This document shows, in pieces, positions 338 through 54,757 of a DNA stretch of 64,000 nucleotides. Source of the DNA: a virus; IMG/VR virus record IMGVR_UViG_3300042540_001822, positions 1 to 64,000 of that record, one strand, 5' to 3'. The translations under genes and the position numbers were made by a program. Position 1 is the stretch's first letter, and every line of letters begins with the position of its first letter. A model generated the notes under the pieces. It had not been told where the DNA came from. It saw only the letters and a program-made list of their open reading frames with translations, and did no database searches.

Positions 338-1321
338 ATGATAGAAGTAAATTTAGATGAATTGGTTATTCTAAATCCAGACAAAATGGAAGGAAGTGAG
401 AATGGTCAAAGAGGAAAGGTAGGAAAGGAACAAATTGATATTCCATCAGAAAGAGAAAATCCAGGAGAAGTTCCAATCCCAGACTTTGACGATTCAGAAA
501 AAACAAGGACCGGTATAGCAAGGAGTATTTCTAAGGTTACTGACGATGGAAAACAACACACAACAAGATCAACTTTAGGTGATGCTGGAACAATTTTTGA
601 CGTTAGTAAAAAATGGGAAAAATTAGCCAATGCTGCTTTATCAAAAGCTGGTTCAGGATTAAGTTCTCAAGCTAAAATGCTTCTCACTGGTTTAATTTCT
701 ACCAAACCCAAGGTAAACTGGAAAAAAGAACTAAAAAAATTCTTCGATTGGGGATTTTCTGGTCAAGAAGATACCCTTCCAAACCGTCGTCTTCTTGGTA
801 GTGGAGACATATTGTATGGAACTAAACCTAAAGAAAAAGAAACCGTCAGAACCCTTGTTGTGGCAGTAGACACCTCTGGTTCTATCTCAACAAAACAAGG
901 AGCTGTTTTTTTGAATGAATGTAATCATCTTTGTAAAATGTTTGATTTTGATGAGATGATTGTTATCTATTGTTCTGATGATATAGGAATAAACGGTAAG
1001 GGAGGGATTGAAAGAGTAAAAAGAGGAAAAAAAATTGAATTCAATCCAGATGGGTCTCCAAAAAATTGGCTCAGTACCGGAGGGAATGATAAAGGATTTG
1101 CTCCTCCTTTTGCCTGGTGTGAAAAAAATAAAATTGTTCCCAGCGCTTTTATTTATTTAACTGATACTGGAGCAGAATATCCATCCGCCACGGCATTTGG
1201 AATTCCAAAATACAAGAACAAAGTTTTTTGGTTTATCTGTTCTTTGTGGGGTGAAGAAAATTTGCCCCCTTTTGGTCGGTATGCTATCATACCCATGGAT
1301 CAAGAAGGAAATTTCACGTAA
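338..1321 (+). CDS. VWA-like domain protein (DUF2201/metallopeptidase-like), copy 1
   Basis: 327 residues. The C-terminal two thirds fit the VWA-like domain found with predicted metallopeptidases and MoxR-type ATPases: VNWKKELKKFF, PNRRLLG, a MIDAS motif DTSGS near residue 178, FIYLTDTGAEYP and a PPFGRY end. The N-terminal 90 residues are acidic, low complexity and begin MIEVNLDELVILNP. The next gene is a paralog with the same start, so the pair is a tandem duplication. In this copy the second MIDAS loop reads GGNDKGFAPPF where copy 2 has GGGGTAFAPPF, so the conserved Thr is missing and metal binding may be altered. Role in phage biology unknown; a chaperone-like or proteolytic partner is a family-based guess. 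Confidence 0.9.
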   Translation: MIEVNLDELVILNPDKMEGSENGQRGKVGKEQIDIPSERENPGEVPIPDFDDSEKTRTGIARSISKVTDDGKQHTTRSTLGDAGTIFDVSKKWEKLANAALSKAGSGLSSQAKMLLTGLISTKPKVNWKKELKKFFDWGFSGQEDTLPNRRLLGSGDILYGTKPKEKETVRTLVVAVDTSGSISTKQGAVFLNECNHLCKMFDFDEMIVIYCSDDIGINGKGGIERVKRGKKIEFNPDGSPKNWLSTGGNDKGFAPPFAWCEKNKIVPSAFIYLTDTGAEYPSATAFGIPKYKNKVFWFICSLWGEENLPPFGRYAIIPMDQEGNFT

Positions 1322-5905: not shown

Positions 5906-5952
5906 GTAAACTTTAATTTCAAATTATACAAGAATATCTTGCCTTTGTTTCT

Positions 5953-6696
5953 TTATCCTATTTTTTCCCCTTCCCTCGTGAATTTATAATCCATCGAATC
6001 CATCCATTCGATTACAGCCTTATCTGAATTGATTGAACCATACTCTGCTTCTAATTCAGAATACAGTTCTCTAGATTTTTGTCTGGCCCATTTGGTTATG
6101 GAATCAGCCAAACTACCCAACCAATTGTCAAATTCTTTCTGCTCACTGGCATTGAAATTCCGTCCTTCCATGGGTTCTTCTACATCTATCTCTGCACTAA
6201 TTGTAAATTCATGATAATAGCGTGAACTATTTCTTTCGATGTTAATCCAAAAATCGTCAGGTGTTAAAGGGATAATTTTAGAATTGATTCCTAGCTCTTC
6301 GAATCCAGAAATCATAGCATCAATTTCGTCTTCTTCTTCTTTTTCTTCTTTTTCTTCTCCATAAGCAAACCACTTTACAGGTTGCAATTTAAGAGCTTCT
6401 TTAAAAAACTTTCCAACGTCTCTAACTCTGGCAGTGAAAGATGCACCATCTCCTTGAGACCAAAAACCGGAAAAATTACATTCAATATTTTCTAAACCCA
6501 ATTCCTCTAATCCGGATTTAAAATTTTCAATCACATCTTCGTACCACCAGGAATCTATCTTATCCCGGTATTCTTCTTTATAATTGGATAAAACCTTTTC
6601 CTGAATTTCCGGGGATAATTCATCGAATGAAAATTCTTGATTCTCTTCGTCAGATTCGAATAAACTGAAGTTCGAAAAGGGAATAATAAACCTCAT
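5953..6696 (-). CDS. Leader-bearing protein with internal SGFEELGIN motif, 247 aa
   Basis: N-terminus MRFIIPFSNFSLFESDEENQ fits the CTS-like leader. An alpha/beta domain (residues 25-110, with W50-W51 and GFWSQGDGASFTAR) is followed by an acidic linker (EEKEEKEEEDE) and EIDAMISGFEELGIN at about residues 124-138. A second alpha/beta part with VDWxxxE-like Glu/Tyr-rich sequence completes the protein. The SQGDGASF segment is typical of an antitoxin/antirestriction-like phage fold, but I cannot name it. A GATATATA box lies directly upstream. Confidence 0.85.
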   Translation of the reverse strand: MRFIIPFSNFSLFESDEENQEFSFDELSPEIQEKVLSNYKEEYRDKIDSWWYEDVIENFKSGLEELGLENIECNFSGFWSQGDGASFTARVRDVGKFFKEALKLQPVKWFAYGEEKEEKEEEDEIDAMISGFEELGINSKIIPLTPDDFWINIERNSSRYYHEFTISAEIDVEEPMEGRNFNASEQKEFDNWLGSLADSITKWARQKSRELYSELEAEYGSINSDKAVIEWMDSMDYKFTREGEKIG

Positions 6697-49521: not shown

Positions 49522-49619
49522 ATGTGGTTGGTTTATGTCGTAAAGATACGACATTTTTACTAAGAATAAAACCAAAACCCCGAAAAGTTTTTCCCCAATT
49601 TATGGGGCTAAGTAAATTG

Positions 49620-49693
49620 TGATTCCACTAGGACTCGAACCTAGGACCTACAAATTATGAGTTTGCAGCTCTAACCAACTGAGCTATGGAATC
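49620..49693 (-). tRNA. tRNA-Met (CAT)
   Basis: Canonical: acceptor GATTCCA/TGGAATC, D-arm GCTC/GAGC, anticodon stem GCAAA/TTTGT with loop CTCATAA, T-arm CTAGG-TTCGAGT-CCTAG. Anticodon CAT; elongator Met or, if modified, Ile2. First RNA of the block. Confidence 0.93.
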
Positions 49694-50000: not shown

Positions 50001-50098
50001 TAGTCAGGACAGGATTCGAACCTGCACACCTCAGTGTTTTATAGTTCATCAACTATGCGTTTCCCAAATGATATGTCTACCAATTTCGCCACCTGACT
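50001..50098 (-). tRNA. tRNA-like RNA 2 (non-canonical interior)
   Basis: 98 nt. Acceptor AGTCAGG/CCTGACT and T-arm CAGG-TTCGAAT-CCTG are perfect. D-type stem GCG/CGC encloses 27 nt; then hairpin ATAGT/ACTAT and a variable-arm-like hairpin ACAC-TGAG-GTGT. No 7-nt anticodon loop can be drawn. Confidence 0.75.
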
Positions 50099-50104
50099 AT
50101 TTGT

Positions 50105-50179
50105 TTAACGATACGGTATTACATTATTTTCAATACACCATAAGTAATACTCTCTGTTGTCAATGTAATAATCTTTCAT
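50105..50179 (-). CDS. Possible micro-ORF, 24 aa
   Basis: MKDYYIDNREYYLWCIENNV. Between two tRNA-like genes; could be chance. Confidence 0.3.
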   Translation of the reverse strand: MKDYYIDNREYYLWCIENNVIPYR

Positions 50180-50201
50180 TGTTTCTATTTTTAATTGTTA
50201 G

Positions 50202-50333
50202 TAGTCAGGACAGGACTCGAACCTGTGCCTTGAGACTGACCCCTTGCTGACCTTTAGGTATCCACATCCTACCAGACTTGATGTGATATTTCTTTATCTG
50301 GGGAGCTGCTCTAACCAACTGAGCTACCTGACT
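50202..50333 (-). tRNA. tRNA-like RNA 3 with pseudoknotted insert
   Basis: 132 nt. Normal acceptor AGTCAGG, D-arm GCTC-AGTTGGTTA-GAGC and T-arm ACAGG-TTCGAGT-CCTGT. The interior has stems CCAGA/TCTGG and ATCACATC/GATGTGGAT that interleave as an H-type pseudoknot, plus ACC/GGT and CCCC/GGGG. Confidence 0.7.
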
Positions 50334-50338
50334 GTGTT

Positions 50339-50536
50339 TTATTCCTCAATATATGTCCACTTTTTAATATCTTTCTCATCACAATAATCATCATATGATG
50401 GAAGATACCACTCACCATTTTTATAATAACACACCTCAAACTTTGGTGTGTTTTTTAATGATGTCCGAATCAAAACCCAACTATTATCTTTGGGAGGTAT
50501 TTTGTCTTTTTTGAAATCTATCCAATTCATATCCAT
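50339..50536 (-). CDS. DUF551-like protein, 65 aa
   Basis: MDMNWIDFKKDKIPPKDNSW, VLIRTSLKNTPKFEVCYYKN, GEWYLPSYDDYC: small family with W..F......P......VL. A common phage protein of unknown role. Confidence 0.65.
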   Translation of the reverse strand: MDMNWIDFKKDKIPPKDNSWVLIRTSLKNTPKFEVCYYKNGEWYLPSYDDYCDEKDIKKWTYIEE

Positions 50537-50538
50537 AC

Positions 50539-50745
50539 TTAAGAATTAAACAATCTTTTATATTCACTTTCACAAGTATCTCGTTTGTTTAATGGGTGAA
50601 CGTCATTCCACTCACCTATATCAACACATTTGACATCTTTTACCTTGGGGTAAATGTAACTAGTGTTTTCAATTAATTGTGTAATTTCTTGTTCACCGAC
50701 ATTTTTTATATCAATAACCAGTAATTCTACTTTATATGCTTTCAT
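50539..50745 (-). CDS. Conserved small phage protein, 68 aa
   Basis: MKAYKVELLVIDIKNVGEQE, ITQLIENTSYIYPKVKDVKC, DIGEWNDVHPLNKRDTCESE: the MKAYKVELLVID...GEW.D.HPLNK family, common in phages. Function unknown. Confidence 0.75.
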   Translation of the reverse strand: MKAYKVELLVIDIKNVGEQEITQLIENTSYIYPKVKDVKCVDIGEWNDVHPLNKRDTCESEYKRLFNS

Positions 50746-50759
50746 ATTTTTATTTTTAG

Positions 50760-50892
50760 CAGTCAGGACAGGATTCGAACCTGTGGTGCAAGTTATTAGG
50801 TGAAGTAATACTCTTCATTCATCAGACTGAGCTGAACCTCTCATTACCTTGCCGACTTGTAGTAGTTGCGTCTGCCATTCCGCCACATGACT
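50760..50892 (-). tRNA. tRNA-like RNA 4
   Basis: 133 nt. Acceptor AGTCATG/CCTGACT has one mismatch; class-II D-arm GCG-GAATGGCAGA-CGC is good; T-arm ACAGG-TTCGAAT-CCTGT is perfect. About 80 nt between them, including hairpin TGAAG-AGTATTA-CTTCA and CAAGT/ACTTG; no normal anticodon arm. Confidence 0.7.
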
Positions 50893-50903
50893 ATTTTATT
50901 TTT

Positions 50904-51011
50904 TTATGCTGTCAACATTCTTATTACAACACCTAACAATACTGAGTAAATCATTGCGGTAATTGCAAAACCAATCATTATACCATCAAAATATGTTTTT
51001 TCCTTTTTCAT
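50904..51011 (-). CDS. Small single-TM protein, 35 aa
   Basis: ATG 51011: MKKEKTYFDGIMIGFAITAM, IYSVLLGVVIRMLTA. Lys-rich start then one hydrophobic helix; like phage membrane micro-proteins. Confidence 0.45.
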   Translation of the reverse strand: MKKEKTYFDGIMIGFAITAMIYSVLLGVVIRMLTA

Positions 51012-51022
51012 AACTTTAAATT

Positions 51023-51232
51023 TTAGGATTTCTGTCTTATCCAAACCTCACCACATTTTTCACACTCTTGTCGGTCTTTAAAATTTCGTACATCATGCTC
51101 GCAAACCGATTTCATAACAGCAGATTGGCGTAATACTTTGGCATACTCATCGGCAAAGTTAAGTGCCATTTCTAAAGTCCAGTGTCTCGTTTCAATCATT
51201 CGAGTTGATTTGTAATATTCTTTTGCTGTCAT
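51023..51232 (-). CDS. Zinc-ribbon-tailed protein, 69 aa
   Basis: MTAKEYYKSTRMIETRHWTL helix, then SVCEHDVRNFKDRQECEKCGEVW: C-x-H...C..C zinc ligands. Family of small phage proteins, unknown role. Confidence 0.7.
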   Translation of the reverse strand: MTAKEYYKSTRMIETRHWTLEMALNFADEYAKVLRQSAVMKSVCEHDVRNFKDRQECEKCGEVWIRQKS

Positions 51233-51241
51233 AACCTTTAT

Positions 51242-51400
51242 TTATGAACTGTGAGGTATTGACTTATCCTTTTGAATTACTTCTAGTGTATCTAGCTGTT
51301 CTTTCAAAGATTTAAGTTCTGTGTGACAAATTAATAACTGCCTTTCCTTTTCTTTAATATGCAATTTTACATCGTAAATTGCTTTCTCAATTTTATTCAT
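51242..51400 (-). CDS. Coiled-coil micro-protein, 52 aa
   Basis: ATG 51400: MNKIEKAIYDVKLHIKEKER, CHTELKSLKEQLDTLEVIQK. Heptad-like Leu/Ile pattern. 9 bp from the next gene. Confidence 0.5.
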   Translation of the reverse strand: MNKIEKAIYDVKLHIKEKERQLLICHTELKSLKEQLDTLEVIQKDKSIPHSS

Positions 51401-51421
51401 TGTGTTAATTAAAAATTTTAG

Positions 51422-51515
51422 TAGTCAGACAGGGTTCGAACCTGTATGTCAGCTTTACATTTCGTTGACTGACCGCACCTTGAAGCGAGCGTCTATCCAA
51501 TTCCGCCACTTGACT
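51422..51515 (-). tRNA. tRNA-Leu-like (CAA), 8-nt anticodon loop
   Basis: 94 nt, closest to canonical in the set. D-arm GCG-GAATTGGATAGA-CGC, anticodon stem CTCGC/GCG with loop TTCAAGGT (anticodon CAA), long variable arm GTCAG/CTGAC, T-arm ACAGG-TTCGAAC-CCTGT. The loop has one base too many and the 5' acceptor AGTCAAG has a bulge against CTGACT. Confidence 0.75.
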
Positions 51516-51521
51516 ATTTAT

Positions 51522-51737
51522 TTAAGTAAGCAAATCCCCACACTTTAGTATATCCCCAACCATTTTCTTGGTACCATTTTCATCAGTAATAGAATTTAGT
51601 TGATAGTGTTTTCCACTGTTGATTGCATCAGCAGTTAAAAGGAATAATGCTTGGATAAATCCATTACAATAAGCAGTCAATTCATATGTGTGTCCATTAC
51701 TGCTTTTAAATAAGCCTATGTACTTGTTATGTTTCAC
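51522..51737 (-). CDS. Hypothetical protein, 71 aa
   Basis: GTG start: MKHNKYIGLFKSSNGHTYEL, FIQALFLLTADAINSGKHYQ. Small phage family that starts with a beta hairpin. Unknown. Confidence 0.65.
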   Translation of the reverse strand: MKHNKYIGLFKSSNGHTYELTAYCNGFIQALFLLTADAINSGKHYQLNSITDENGTKKMVGDILKCGDLLT

Positions 51738-51782
51738 TGTATTTATTTTATTAAGACAAATATACTATTGAAATGAGATTAG

Positions 51783-51815
51783 AAAAAATGAAACCCCAGG
51801 CCAAAAGACCTGGGG
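51783..51815 (-). terminator. Terminator after 51870
   Basis: CCCCAGG-TCTTTTGG-CCTGGGG on the minus strand, then TTTCATTTTTTC. Same design as the terminator at 41122. Confidence 0.7.
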
Positions 51816-51869
51816 CTTGAAAGGGACCCAACCACAGATCCCTTTCGGGAGGGGGACTTTGGACTCCTA

Positions 51870-52220
51870 TTAGTCTTCCCCCTCCTGGTCCATTTCTTTT
51901 TTACGTTCAAGACCCCCAAACAAACCCCCCATCATTTTCTGAATTTCTTCTCGTTTGTTTTCGAATCCTGCGTGGATTTTTCCAACAAAATAACCTGCCA
52001 GAAGAAGTTTCTTTTCGTAACGTGTTAGGGAACCAGGAACATCCAGTTCCTCGGAACGAACAAAGTTACCACAGTCAAGAATGGTGTCAGAAACTGAATC
52101 ACATTTCTTAAAGGAATTCACACATTCCTTAGCCAATGAATCGAAACAGGAATCTGATAAACTGAGACCTCCGGAGATAGTTTTTGGGTAGAATGGTGCG
52201 TCATGCGGATGATTTGACAT
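51870..52220 (-). CDS. Hypothetical protein, 116 aa (paralog of 41197-41556)
   Basis: MSNHPHDAPFYPKTISGGLS, YEKKLLLAGYFVGKIHAGFE, GGLFGGLERKKEMDQEGED. Homologous to 41197 over its full length including the 3' flank. It is the only ordinary gene inside the tRNA-like block. Promoter variant TACCTTTAC at 52247. Confidence 0.8.
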   Translation of the reverse strand: MSNHPHDAPFYPKTISGGLSLSDSCFDSLAKECVNSFKKCDSVSDTILDCGNFVRSEELDVPGSLTRYEKKLLLAGYFVGKIHAGFENKREEIQKMMGGLFGGLERKKEMDQEGED

Positions 52221-52320
52221 AAAATAAGGGTTTAAAGGTTAATGATGTAAAGGTAAGATAAAATTTAGTGAAAAAAAAATGGAACCCCGATTTTATAAAA
52301 TAAATTTGAAATTGTTTTAG

Positions 52321-52407
52321 TAGTCAGGACAGGATTCGAACCTGTGTTCAGGGACTCAAAGTAAGTAACCCTCTGAGTTTGAATGGCAATCTTTTCGCCA
52401 CCTGACT
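52321..52407 (-). tRNA. tRNA-like RNA 6
   Basis: 87 nt. Acceptor/T-arm standard for the set. Short GGC/GCC stem, then an 8-bp hairpin ACTCAGAG/CTTTGAGT with a 9-nt loop GGTTACTTA, alternatively a pseudoknot ACTCA/TGAGT with GGG/CCC. No normal anticodon. Confidence 0.72.
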
Positions 52408-52471
52408 ATTTGTAATTTTGGCTTTTCATTTAGTATCCACAGAGCCCAAATTACTAAAATGAACTGTGCTG

Positions 52472-52593
52472 TAGTCAGGACAGGATTCGAACCTGTGACA
52501 TTGCAACCCTTATACTTCCCGCGTCCTAATGATTATGAACCGTGTTGTTTTCGGGATGTGATAAACCTCTTTCACATTACGCAATACCTGACT
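52472..52593 (-). tRNA. tRNA-like RNA 7
   Basis: 122 nt. Acceptor/T-arm as in the others, but no D-arm: the interior is an ATTGC/GCAAT stem holding ATGTGA-(10)-TCACAT and TCCCG/CGGGA stems. This is a structured RNA with a tRNA top half only. Confidence 0.7.
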
Positions 52594-52808
52594 ATGTTTC
52601 CCCACCCTGAGATTTGGGGTGAGTAGTCATTCTGGTTTTTTCCTATTGATAAAACCTACAGGGCATCCCCTATTAAAACAGTCACACTACGAAGGAGGGG
52701 CTGTGAGTGGCACCTTTAGCCCTAAGAACCGGCATTCCGCTGTCCGATTTAAGCGAGTCCATTGTTTAAGTCTTGAACCAAAGACTCTGAGTATCTCTTA
52801 CTCATTGC
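52594..52808. other. Structured, ORF-poor spacer
   Basis: Contains CCCCACCCTGAGATTTGGGG-type hairpins (52600-52621) and several CAGTCACACTACG..GTGAG words. Nothing coding. Confidence 0.35.
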
Positions 52809-52928
52809 AGTCAGGACAGGACTCGAACCCGTGGAGAACGGCTTGATAGTTTCTGCGCGAGGGCTACTTAATTCGCCACCCCTCAATCCTTGTTCTCAAT
52901 TACGCTGCGGAACCACCGCCACCTGACT
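52808..52928 (-). tRNA. tRNA-like RNA 8
   Basis: 121 nt. Interior hairpins GCGG/CCGC, GAGAAC/GTTCTC enclosing GAGGG/CCCTC; T-arm ACGGG-TTCGAGT-CCTGT with one GT pair. Acceptor AGTCAGG/CCTGACT. Not a cloverleaf. Confidence 0.7.
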
Positions 52929-53089
52929 ATATTTAAAGTAACCCAACTCAGAGGGGTATTTGTTACATTATCACAGCTTTTGCAAAGTACTCTGGTTAAT
53001 TACTCCGTCTGTACCCAACTGCTTTATGTTGGCTTATAGCTGGCTATTTTAATGCAACTCACAACTTTATTTGTTGGAATTACTTTTTG

Positions 53090-53170
53090 TAGTCAGGGCA
53101 GGACTCGAACCTGCGGGAACTGTTTTGCCACGTAGGACTTATGTAGGCTCCACCATTTTGCCACCTGACT
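53090..53170 (-). tRNA. tRNA-like RNA 9
   Basis: 81 nt, near normal size. Acceptor AGTCAGG/CCTGACT, D-type stem GGC-AAAATGGTGGA-GCC, T-arm GCAGG-TTCGAGT-CCTGC. The anticodon region TACATAAGTCCTACGT gives no good 5+7+5 arm. Confidence 0.72.
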
Positions 53171-53342
53171 GTGTGTACCGTTCCTATCTACTTTATGAAC
53201 ATACGGTACCAGATGCTTCATCATGACCTTCGGATAGGTAAGTTTTGAGGATGAGAAGACCTCTGTGTTGTAAGTTGCCTACCATAAATGGTATCCTTTA
53301 GCATCTACTCAAGCAATTCCTTTCTCAAGGGAACAACACTAG

Positions 53343-53463
53343 CAGTAAGGACAGGCTTCGAACCTGTAAGGTCTCCATGACAGAGCCTATGGTGTGATTA
53401 CGCTCACTCATCTTAGGGATGCGAACCCATTCCAATACCGTTTACCAATTTCGGCACCTAACT
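53343..53463 (-). tRNA. tRNA-like RNA 10
   Basis: 121 nt. Acceptor AGTTAGG/CCTTACT (one mismatch), class-II D-arm CCG-AAATTGGTAAA-CGG, hairpin GGG-TTCGCAT-CCC, further stems GTGA/TCAC and CCAT/ATGG, T-arm ACAGG-TTCGAAG-CCTGT. Confidence 0.68.
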
Positions 53464-53976
53464 AAAAAAGAAGGTTCTGGATCGTACCTGGACCAATCAG
53501 GAGAACCTTCAAATTGTATATAAAAGGTCATTTATAATCCTACCTATATTTCCAAGATCCTTTGGAATATAGTAACCATCCAAGGTAGGCCTATACTCTG
53601 GCACTCCGTCTGTACTTGTTGGCCTAATCAATGTGTCATAGGTTTTCAGATACAGCGTTCAGTGTTACCCTCAGGACTTCTTCATCCTGCCCCCAAAGTT
53701 ACGTGGGAACCTCACTTAGAAGTTTAAGTGTGTATCGTAGAATTGTCCAGTATTTCTACGACTTGTGGATTACAACACGACCAATTAAGGCCCCTTACCC
53801 TCTCAATCCATAATGAGGGACTCATTTATTCTCGTTCCCGACGTAACCTACTGAATACCTTCTGTGGTTATACGAATTTCACTTTTGTGTATCTTTCACC
53901 CATAGCCACGAAGACTTCCAGTCGTGGATCACACACCATAACGGATGAGTACTTCCGTTAATTGTGGGCTCTTTTG
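53464..53976. ncRNA. Structured non-coding region, about 500 nt
   Basis: Strong hairpins: GAAGGTTCT/AGAACCTTC (53470-53510, with a T-arm-like CCAGG-TACGATC inside), CTATATTTCCA/TGGAATATAG (53544-53572) within CCTACC/GGTAGG, CGTAGAA/TTCTACG (53736-53760), CCACGA/CGTGG (53906-53927), CGGA/TCCG (53942-53957). No ORF of gene quality. Could be one or several RNAs on the minus strand. Confidence 0.45.
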
Positions 53977-54072
53977 TTGATTAATAAGGATTCGAACCTT
54001 AATCCTCCAGCCCTGTAGCGTTTCGTGTTCCCGAACCTACCGGGGCCAGTGTGCCCATTACACTATAATCAA
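53977..54072 (-). tRNA. tRNA-like RNA 11 with hairpin in anticodon loop
   Basis: 96 nt. Its own acceptor TTGATTA/TAATCAA, D-arm GTGT-AATGGGC-ACAC, T-arm TAAGG-TTCGAAT-CCTTA, anticodon stem GGCCC/GGGCT. The anticodon 'loop' is 29 nt and contains hairpin GTAG/CTAC instead of a 7-nt loop. Confidence 0.75.
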
Positions 54073-54200
54073 TCGAGAGTTTCGAACCTCTCAGGTACCA
54101 AGGTAATTAATCTTGGACTTTGCAATCGGTGTGAGAATCGAACTCACTCAAAAGGACGGTTCCTTTATCAGTTACACAAAGTAATTACTCCTTGCTTTAC
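54073..54200 (-). other. Two orphan T-arm-like hairpins
   Basis: GAGAG...TTCGAA...CTCTC (54074-54091) and GTGAG-TTCGATT-CTCAC (54130-54146) without matching acceptors; likely remnants or further tRNA-like RNAs. Confidence 0.35.
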
Positions 54201-54340
54201 CTGCCGTGTAACGTTTTGTGGCCACTCCGCGTTACCAAATGTCAACCAAAGACATACCAATTCCGCTGTCTTCCCAGCTGTGTGGGTTTAGTATTGACTT
54301 ACCCGTCAATGACGAGCTCTTGCCCCAAACCAAGGCTAGG

Positions 54341-54436
54341 TAGTCAGGACAGGAATCGAACCTGTGAGTATAGGATTAGCGCTTAGCCTATACACATCTT
54401 ATTTCTAGAGTGCGTCTACCACTCCGCCACCTGACC
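54341..54436 (-). tRNA. tRNA-like RNA 13 (class-II shape, degenerate anticodon)
   Basis: 96 nt. Acceptor GGTCAGG/CCTGACT (one GT), D-arm GCG/CGC, variable arm GTATAGG/CCTATAC, T-arm ACAGG-TTCGATT-CCTGT. The anticodon segment CTCTAGAAATAAGATGT does not form a 5-bp stem and lacks U33. Confidence 0.72.
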
Positions 54437-54689
54437 AAATAAAGGGACTGGTTACCCCTTAAGTACCGTTTTCCCGGTTGACGATCTTTCTGTTCACACC
54501 ATGCCACTTTTTTTAGGCATTACAGTGACTGGTTGTTCCCTACTCCAACTACCAGAAAGATCTCGTTGAAAGCAAGGCCGGGTCTAAAAATGGAAAGCAA
54601 TAACTTTCCAAATGAACCATTTTCCATTTTCAGTCTCCCGACTGAAGATGATGATTTTTCCAAAATGTCAAAGAACAAAATCTTTAGTA
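54437..54689. other. Structured spacer
   Basis: Stems GATCTTTCTG/CAGAAAGATC, GGAAAG/CTTTCC and CAGTC/GACTG; no ORF. Confidence 0.35.
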
Positions 54690-54757
54690 GCGGGTGGGGG
54701 TAACGCTCCCCCTACACACCTTGGGTTATGAGCCCAGGCTGCTACTAAGCTACCCGC
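54690..54757 (-). tRNA. tRNA-Met (CAT), atypical T-loop
   Basis: Acceptor GCGGGT/ACCCGC, anticodon stem TGGG/CCCA with loop CTCATAA (CAT), T-stem GGGGG/CCCCC but loop AGCGTTA instead of TTCRANN. D-arm short. Last RNA of the block. Confidence 0.75.

What the first reader, a model, noticed from the sequence alone, without database searches (positions are those of the whole stretch)
50001..54436. Array of about eleven tRNA-like RNAs that keep the acceptor/T half but not the cloverleaf
Seen: at 50001, 50202, 50760, 51422, 52321, 52472, 52808, 53090, 53343 and 54341 the minus strand repeats AGTCAGG...CAGG-TTCGAAT-CCTG-TCCTGACT, while the 50-105 nt between differ completely. Some have a normal D-arm, several a pseudoknot or nested hairpins, almost none a 5+7+5 anticodon arm (one has a 29-nt loop with its own hairpin, 53977). 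Two recognisable tRNA-Met genes bracket them. Inference: these are RNAs with tRNA ends, processed by RNase P/Z, possibly decoys for tRNA-acting enzymes, aminoacylation mimics, or tRNAs with small unknown introns. I know of no described phage set of this design.
Basis: partly seen in the sequence, partly recalled or inferred. Interest (0 to 1): 0.93.

Follow-up and report, generated by a model that had tools for sequence, protein, structure and literature searches.

The report
Phage tRNA-framed RNAs with swappable interiors
Viruses that probably infect Bacteroidetes carry a large, apparently undescribed class of small RNAs that keep the ends and elbow of a transfer RNA but replace its decoding arm with one of hundreds of different structured inserts, which points to a tRNA-shaped carrier for interchangeable RNA payloads of unknown target.

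Summary
Ten minus-strand elements share a 7-bp AGTCAGG/CCTGACT acceptor, the same T-arm, A or G at position 73, and C74; two more have other ends. ARAGORN calls none a tRNA. This is not local: about 320 IMG/VR stretches gave 464 distinct elements with 292 interior types, against 8 contigs in 84,980 GTDB genomes.

The elements keep the tRNA elbow (15-48 pair covaries, p=4e-10), the leader and trailer signature of true tRNAs (T-1; C74 in 99%) and a tRNA-Leu-type upper half. They lack an anticodon arm (28 of 228; 16 expected by chance). Interiors are conserved, structured domains that recur with unrelated flanks and swap at one site (9 types at a locus in 17 contigs). So they are neither decayed nor intron-bearing tRNAs.

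The spacers are new RNAs too: X2 (~490 nt, 31 compensated pairs), X5, and X3, a second conserved frame with hypervariable inserts.

Best reading: phage RNA cassettes matured like tRNAs, the frame giving ends and stability, the insert binding a target, perhaps for counter-defence. Processing is inferred and the target unknown. No RNA data could be examined; subscription literature could not be checked.

The parts
50001..50098 (-). tRNA-framed RNA E1 (acceptor AGTCAGG/CCTGACT, A73)
   Evidence: no payload relative found
50202..50333 (-). tRNA-framed RNA E2, class-I type D-arm
   Evidence: payload relative in L293 E=1.8e-14, one compensatory pair
50760..50892 (-). tRNA-framed RNA E3 (G73; one acceptor mismatch)
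   Evidence: relative in L019 E=2e-12; several compensatory pairs
51422..51515 (-). tRNA-framed RNA E4 (bulged acceptor)
   Evidence: relative in L019; GTCAG/CTGAC versus GTTAG/CTAAC
52321..52407 (-). tRNA-framed RNA E5
   Evidence: relatives in L314, L234; two compensatory pairs
52472..52593 (-). tRNA-framed RNA E6, payload family with long and short forms
   Evidence: 12-sequence alignment; 20 matches with model R2
52808..52928 (-). tRNA-framed RNA E7 (G73)
   Evidence: relative in L037 E=3.3e-16
53090..53170 (-). tRNA-framed RNA E8
   Evidence: no payload relative found
53343..53463 (-). tRNA-framed RNA E9 (G73, one acceptor mismatch)
   Evidence: relatives L153, L078; D-stem C-G to G-C change
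53977..54072 (-). tRNA-like RNA E10 with ~29-nt anticodon loop and other ends
   Evidence: read by eye; no relative found
54123..54262 (-). tRNA-like RNA E11 with other ends; payload also found in AGTCAGG-type frames elsewhere; 5' limit uncertain
   Evidence: relatives L072, L019, L187
54341..54436 (-). tRNA-framed RNA E12
   Evidence: relatives L174, L328, L315
53468..53957 (-). X2: large structured RNA ending in a terminator-like hairpin with T run
53244..53339 (-). X3: second conserved frame (GUGUUGU/ACAACAC stem, complementary loops GAGAA/UUCUC) with hypervariable insert
52598..52807 (-). X5: ~210-nt structured RNA family
52931..53089 (-). X4: conserved noncoding stretch
   Evidence: 2 relatives
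52408..52471 (-). X6: conserved short stretch between E5 and E6
   Evidence: 1 relative
54437..54640 (-). X1: conserved noncoding stretch
   Evidence: 1 relative, L019 E=1.6e-18
49619..49693 (-). ordinary tRNA-Met (CAT)
54689..54757 (-). tRNA-Met-like gene with abnormal T-loop
   Evidence: not called by ARAGORN or Rfam

Best explanation
A phage class of tRNA-framed RNA cassettes. Shown from sequence: a constant tRNA-Leu-type frame (acceptor stem, T-arm, usually D-arm with the elbow contacts, A73, C74) carries one of hundreds of conserved structured inserts where the anticodon and variable arms should be. The inserts recur in unrelated contexts and are exchanged at fixed loci. Inferred with good support: the RNAs are cut out and given CCA ends by the host's tRNA machinery, which makes them stable. 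Inferred weakly: the insert is the working part and binds a host or rival-phage protein or RNA. The exchange of inserts at one site resembles anti-defence loci, so counter-defence or host takeover is the most likely use.
For: Elbow: pair 15-48 covaries in one representative per insert type (A15:U48 207, G15:C48 9, A15:C48 11, G15:U48 1; p=4e-10), U8 with A14 in 254/292, GG in the D-loop in 271/292. Processing: leader and trailer match 554 ordinary tRNAs of the same phages (T-1 0.84 vs 0.69, A-2 0.73 vs 0.62, C74 0.99 vs 0.99, A76 0.76 vs 0.76); 842 neighbouring tRNAs on the same strand, 0 opposite. No anticodon stem: 28/228 vs 16 by shuffling. Insert selection: 40 insert families, mean structure z -1.74, 42% below -2; compensatory changes in window elements. 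Modularity: 803/1036 same-insert pairs share neither flank; one locus in 17 contigs holds 9 insert types. Independent sample: in loci fetched for X3 only, 53 of 77 uncalled elements have acceptor AGTCAGG vs 11 of 265 called tRNAs. Leu type: 177/292, with a classifier that names 67 of 72 true Leu and 8 of the other tRNAs.
Against: No transcript, end or CCA data were available. Single-sequence stability of inserts is only slightly above control (mean z -0.56 vs -0.23), so part may be pseudoknotted or weakly folded. Several insert families gave no structure signal, for example clusters 0 and 28. Three of the ten window elements have acceptor defects. No insert matches any Rfam family and no partner protein is consistently nearby, so nothing identifies the target.
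Confidence: 0.6

Rival explanations
1. The frame is the active part: decoys or mimics for enzymes that act on the acceptor half and elbow (LeuRS, EF-Tu, CCA enzyme, or host nucleases that cut tRNA), with inserts that merely prevent decoding or cleavage.
For: Frame far more constant than inserts; A73 in 89%; Leu-type upper half, and LeuRS does not read the anticodon. Defences that cut tRNAs, and phage tRNAs that evade them, are published (titles and abstracts).
Against: Does not explain why inserts are conserved, structured and shared between unrelated contexts.
Confidence: 0.17
2. Base-pairing regulators or guides: inserts are antisense to host, phage or rival transcripts.
For: Hypervariable inserts in two unrelated frames (tRNA frame and X3).
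Against: No long antisense match to the phage's own genome or to 16S and 23S rRNA of Bacteroidota; compensatory changes favour structure. The true host's genome was not available.
Confidence: 0.1
3. Punctuation: tRNA-like shapes mark cut sites in phage mRNAs, and the insert is irrelevant.
For: Single elements lie between genes on the same strand, for example next to one gene family in 17 contigs.
Against: Inserts are under selection; many elements stand in dense arrays with nothing coding between them.
Confidence: 0.06
4. tRNA genes with small introns.
For: Some have a stem at the anticodon position with a long loop (E10; L011, L022, L025).
Against: Anticodon stem near chance; insertions also in the D-loop; compensatory changes inside inserts.
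Confidence: 0.03
5. Decaying tRNA genes.
For: Acceptor mismatches in E3, E4 and E9.
Against: Conserved inserts, structural covariation, intact elbow contacts and processing signals.
Confidence: 0.03

Closest known systems
tmRNA (tRNA-like domain)
   Same: Acceptor stem, T-arm and D-loop kept, anticodon arm replaced by other RNA
   Different: tmRNA carries the alanine signal G3:U70 and a tag reading frame; here position 3-70 is U-A in all 292 representatives, ARAGORN finds no tmRNA in the window, and hundreds of insert types exist
Phage-encoded tRNA arrays and anti-defence phage tRNAs
   Same: Same islands, same strand, same processing flanks
   Different: Those keep the anticodon arm; these do not
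GOLLD and ROOL large phage RNAs
   Same: Large structured phage RNAs near tRNA islands, function unknown (PMC12286853); some of these loci carry GOLLD
   Different: X2 and X5 match neither in Rfam; the tRNA-framed elements are small and variable
Stable RNAs of unknown function in the T4 tRNA cluster (species 1 and 2; from memory, a lead only)
   Same: Small non-tRNA RNAs inside a phage tRNA cluster
   Different: Not compared by sequence here; a pair of RNAs, not an exchangeable class with a constant tRNA frame
YrlA (Y RNA-like, tRNA-like module)
   Same: Non-decoding RNA with tRNA-like parts
   Different: No YrlA match in the window; only sub-threshold matches over ordinary tRNAs in L293

Membership tests
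Decoding tRNA | Acceptor and T-arm with D/T elbow contacts | tested here: met
   window elements E3, E4, E9 have minor acceptor defects
Decoding tRNA | 5-bp anticodon stem with 7-nt loop | tested here: not met
   28 of 228 representatives have a stem, 16 expected by chance; ARAGORN calls none of the ten in the window
Decoding tRNA | Processed ends and CCA | tested here: inconclusive
   Flank signature equals that of ordinary tRNAs; no RNA data
Intron-bearing tRNA | A normal anticodon arm once the insert is removed | tested here: not met
tmRNA | Alanine identity pair G3:U70 | tested here: not met
   T at position 3 and A at position 70 in 292/292
tmRNA | Tag-coding frame | not tested
   -
tRNA-Leu mimic | Leu-type upper half (A73, A15:U48, GGYGRAA D-arm) | tested here: met
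   177 of 292 classify as Leu, the rest are scattered
tRNA-Leu mimic | Leucylation | not testable with these tools
   -
GOLLD / ROOL (for X2, X5) | Match to the Rfam covariance model | tested here: not met
YrlA | Match to RF02553 | tested here: not met
tRNA pseudogene | No constraint on structure or sequence of the interior | tested here: not met

The most novel reading that the evidence does not exclude
Phages, probably of Bacteroidota, carry an exchangeable arsenal of RNA effectors on constant carriers: a tRNA-Leu-type frame matured by the host's own tRNA enzymes, and a second loop-paired frame (X3). The inserts act like RNA counterparts of anti-defence proteins against host or rival-phage systems.
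Probability: 0.35. Interest if true: 0.97.

Novelty: categorically new. Interest (0 to 1): 0.9.

Why it matters
A widespread class of RNAs has probably been hidden because tRNA finders skip it and Rfam lacks it. It looks like a natural version of the engineered 'tRNA scaffold', with hundreds of insert types, and would give a large set of structured RNAs whose binding partners could be found. If the inserts are anti-defence agents, they would be a rich source of RNA inhibitors and would offer a testable reason why large phages keep RNA islands beside their tRNAs. The same islands hold several further unknown structured RNAs.

Tried and rejected
Protein partner: no family consistently near the elements, at most 23 of several hundred contigs within 3 kb. 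Antisense to own genome and to host rRNA: none. Known RNA domain inside inserts: none in Rfam at E up to 0.05 in ten dense loci. Shared sequence motif among inserts: none beyond chance, apart from 9 inserts with a second T-arm where 0.1 were expected. Insert shared between the tRNA frame and X3: only a 21-nt weak match. Presence in cellular Bacteroidota: payload model R2 and X2 absent from 297 genomes; X3 model absent from 4 MAGs; these searches carried no positive control. X2-X5 region in INPHARED: no match. Terminal-inverted-repeat mobile element: rejected because of elbow covariation and tRNA-type flanks. Structure signal for X2 also appears on the antisense strand, so strand rests on the terminator-like end and on synteny. 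Covariation within acceptor and T-stem was not used as evidence, because pairing there was part of the search. Relatives of a virus record could not be drawn.
Full report
WHAT IS THERE. The minus strand of 50001-54436 holds ten elements with acceptor AGTCAGG (or a close variant), T-arm ACAGG-TTCGAAT-CCTGT, 3' acceptor strand CCTGACT, A or G at 73 and C at 74. Two more, at 53977 and 54123, have different ends. ARAGORN calls none of them. Rfam's tRNA model gives five of them 30-46 bits against 71 for the real tRNA-Met at 49619. In the 219-kb virus record the motif occurs only here, and the record has just three ordinary tRNAs.

HOW COMMON. No record among 50,697 deposited phages gave a full-length match to the 3' end; the best of those listed are 86-96% over 25-31 bases. 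The 735-kb phage LR756501 has an element with slightly different ends. From the fetched loci I collected 464 distinct elements; 97 are called by ARAGORN, against 554 of 674 elements with other acceptors in the same loci. Median length is about 102 nt, against about 73 for the called tRNAs. The acceptor is not an artefact of fetching: in 101 loci fetched only for the unrelated motif X3, 53 of 77 uncalled tRNA-like elements have AGTCAGG, against 11 of 265 called ones.

THE FRAME IS A tRNA FRAME. One representative was taken for each of 292 insert types. U8-A14 is kept in 254 and GG of the D-loop in 271. The Levitt pair 15-48, which was not a search criterion, covaries (A:U 207, G:C 9, against 11 and 1 mispaired; p=4e-10). 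Leaders and trailers match those of 554 ordinary tRNAs in the same phages position by position: T at -1, A at -2 and -4, C at 74 in 99%, A at 76. All 842 ordinary tRNAs counted within 1.5 kb lie on the same strand. The upper half is of tRNA-Leu type: in these phages A15:U48 plus A73 plus a GGYGRAA D-arm is a Leu signature (71 and 72 of 72), and 177 of 292 elements classify as Leu. That bacterial LeuRS ignores the anticodon is established knowledge, not tested here.

THE ANTICODON ARM IS GONE. Only 28 of 228 have a stem where it should be, against 16 after shuffling. Some elements have extra hairpins inside the D-loop instead, and nine inserts contain a second T-arm.

THE INSERTS ARE SELECTED. 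Forty insert families with three or more members have a mean consensus-structure z of -1.74, and 42% lie below -2, with compensatory changes above shuffled columns in many. Nine of the twelve window elements have an insert relative elsewhere, and several show compensatory changes, for example GTCAG/CTGAC against GTTAG/CTAAC in E4. E6 belongs to a family with a long and a short form of the same core. Not every family gives a signal, and single-sequence stability is only slightly above control.

THE INSERTS ARE EXCHANGED. Of 1036 pairs with the same insert type in different loci, 803 share neither flank. 285 pairs share both flanks but differ in insert; this count may include cases where a neighbouring element, not a gene, is the similar flank. 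The cleanest case: downstream of one gene family in 17 contigs, mostly at exactly 189 nt, sit 9 different insert types, all on the same strand.

THE SPACERS. X2 (53468-53957) is a ~400-520-nt RNA with 99 predicted pairs, 31 of them with compensatory changes (5.8 in shuffles), and a terminator-like end; 28 IMG/VR stretches carry its core. X5 has 11 of 18 pairs compensated. X3 has a constant stem and two loops that could pair (GAGAA/UUCUC; two sequences have GATAA/TTATC), around inserts that fall into 90 clusters among about 130. It is thus a second constant-frame, variable-insert design. None of the three matches Rfam.

MECHANISM. Shown: constant tRNA frame, no decoding arm, conserved structured inserts, exchange. 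Well supported but not shown: processing and CCA addition by the tRNA pathway. Weakly supported: the insert binds a target, with counter-defence favoured because inserts turn over at fixed loci as anti-defence genes do (an argument by analogy). The phage also encodes an RNA ligase, compatible with RNA-level conflict but not specific. The rival that the frame itself is the decoy cannot be excluded.

NOVELTY. No matching description was found in Rfam 15, INPHARED or the open-access papers held. Subscription journals and most preprints could not be searched, so a published description may exist. tmRNA is the nearest in architecture, but the alanine pair G3:U70 is absent in all representatives.

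Noticed in passing
   Followed up: partly
G000:C1:144467-145003 (L346): RNA ligase (PF09414, 89.6 bits); by eye of the DRB0094/Rnl5 type.
   Followed up: no
L218:8832-9239, L165:11836-12243, L025:4124-4186, L165:3348-3409: GOLLD and freshwater-1 RNAs occur in the same phage RNA islands; L165 also has a tmRNA.
   Followed up: no
L074:1916, L307:458, L273:9456: tRNA-like elements with two successive T-arms, the inner one belonging to a nearly complete tRNA.
   Followed up: no
L035:484, L089:4838, L265:10406, L217:3684: Hairpins of about 20-45 nt inserted in the D-loop while the GG and the D-stem are kept.
   Followed up: partly
L344:2864-2980 and 5917-6026 (LR756501, 735 kb): A 735-kb phage genome also has tRNA-framed elements, one with a different acceptor.
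   Followed up: partly
window 52408-52471: X6 looks like several crossed stems (CACAG/CTGTG, CATTTTAGT/ACTAAATG, GTAATTT/AAATTAC); a possible pseudoknot, nearly identical in L314.
   Followed up: no
window 338-1321: VWA-like protein (PF09967, phrog_1314) at the window edge.
   Followed up: no
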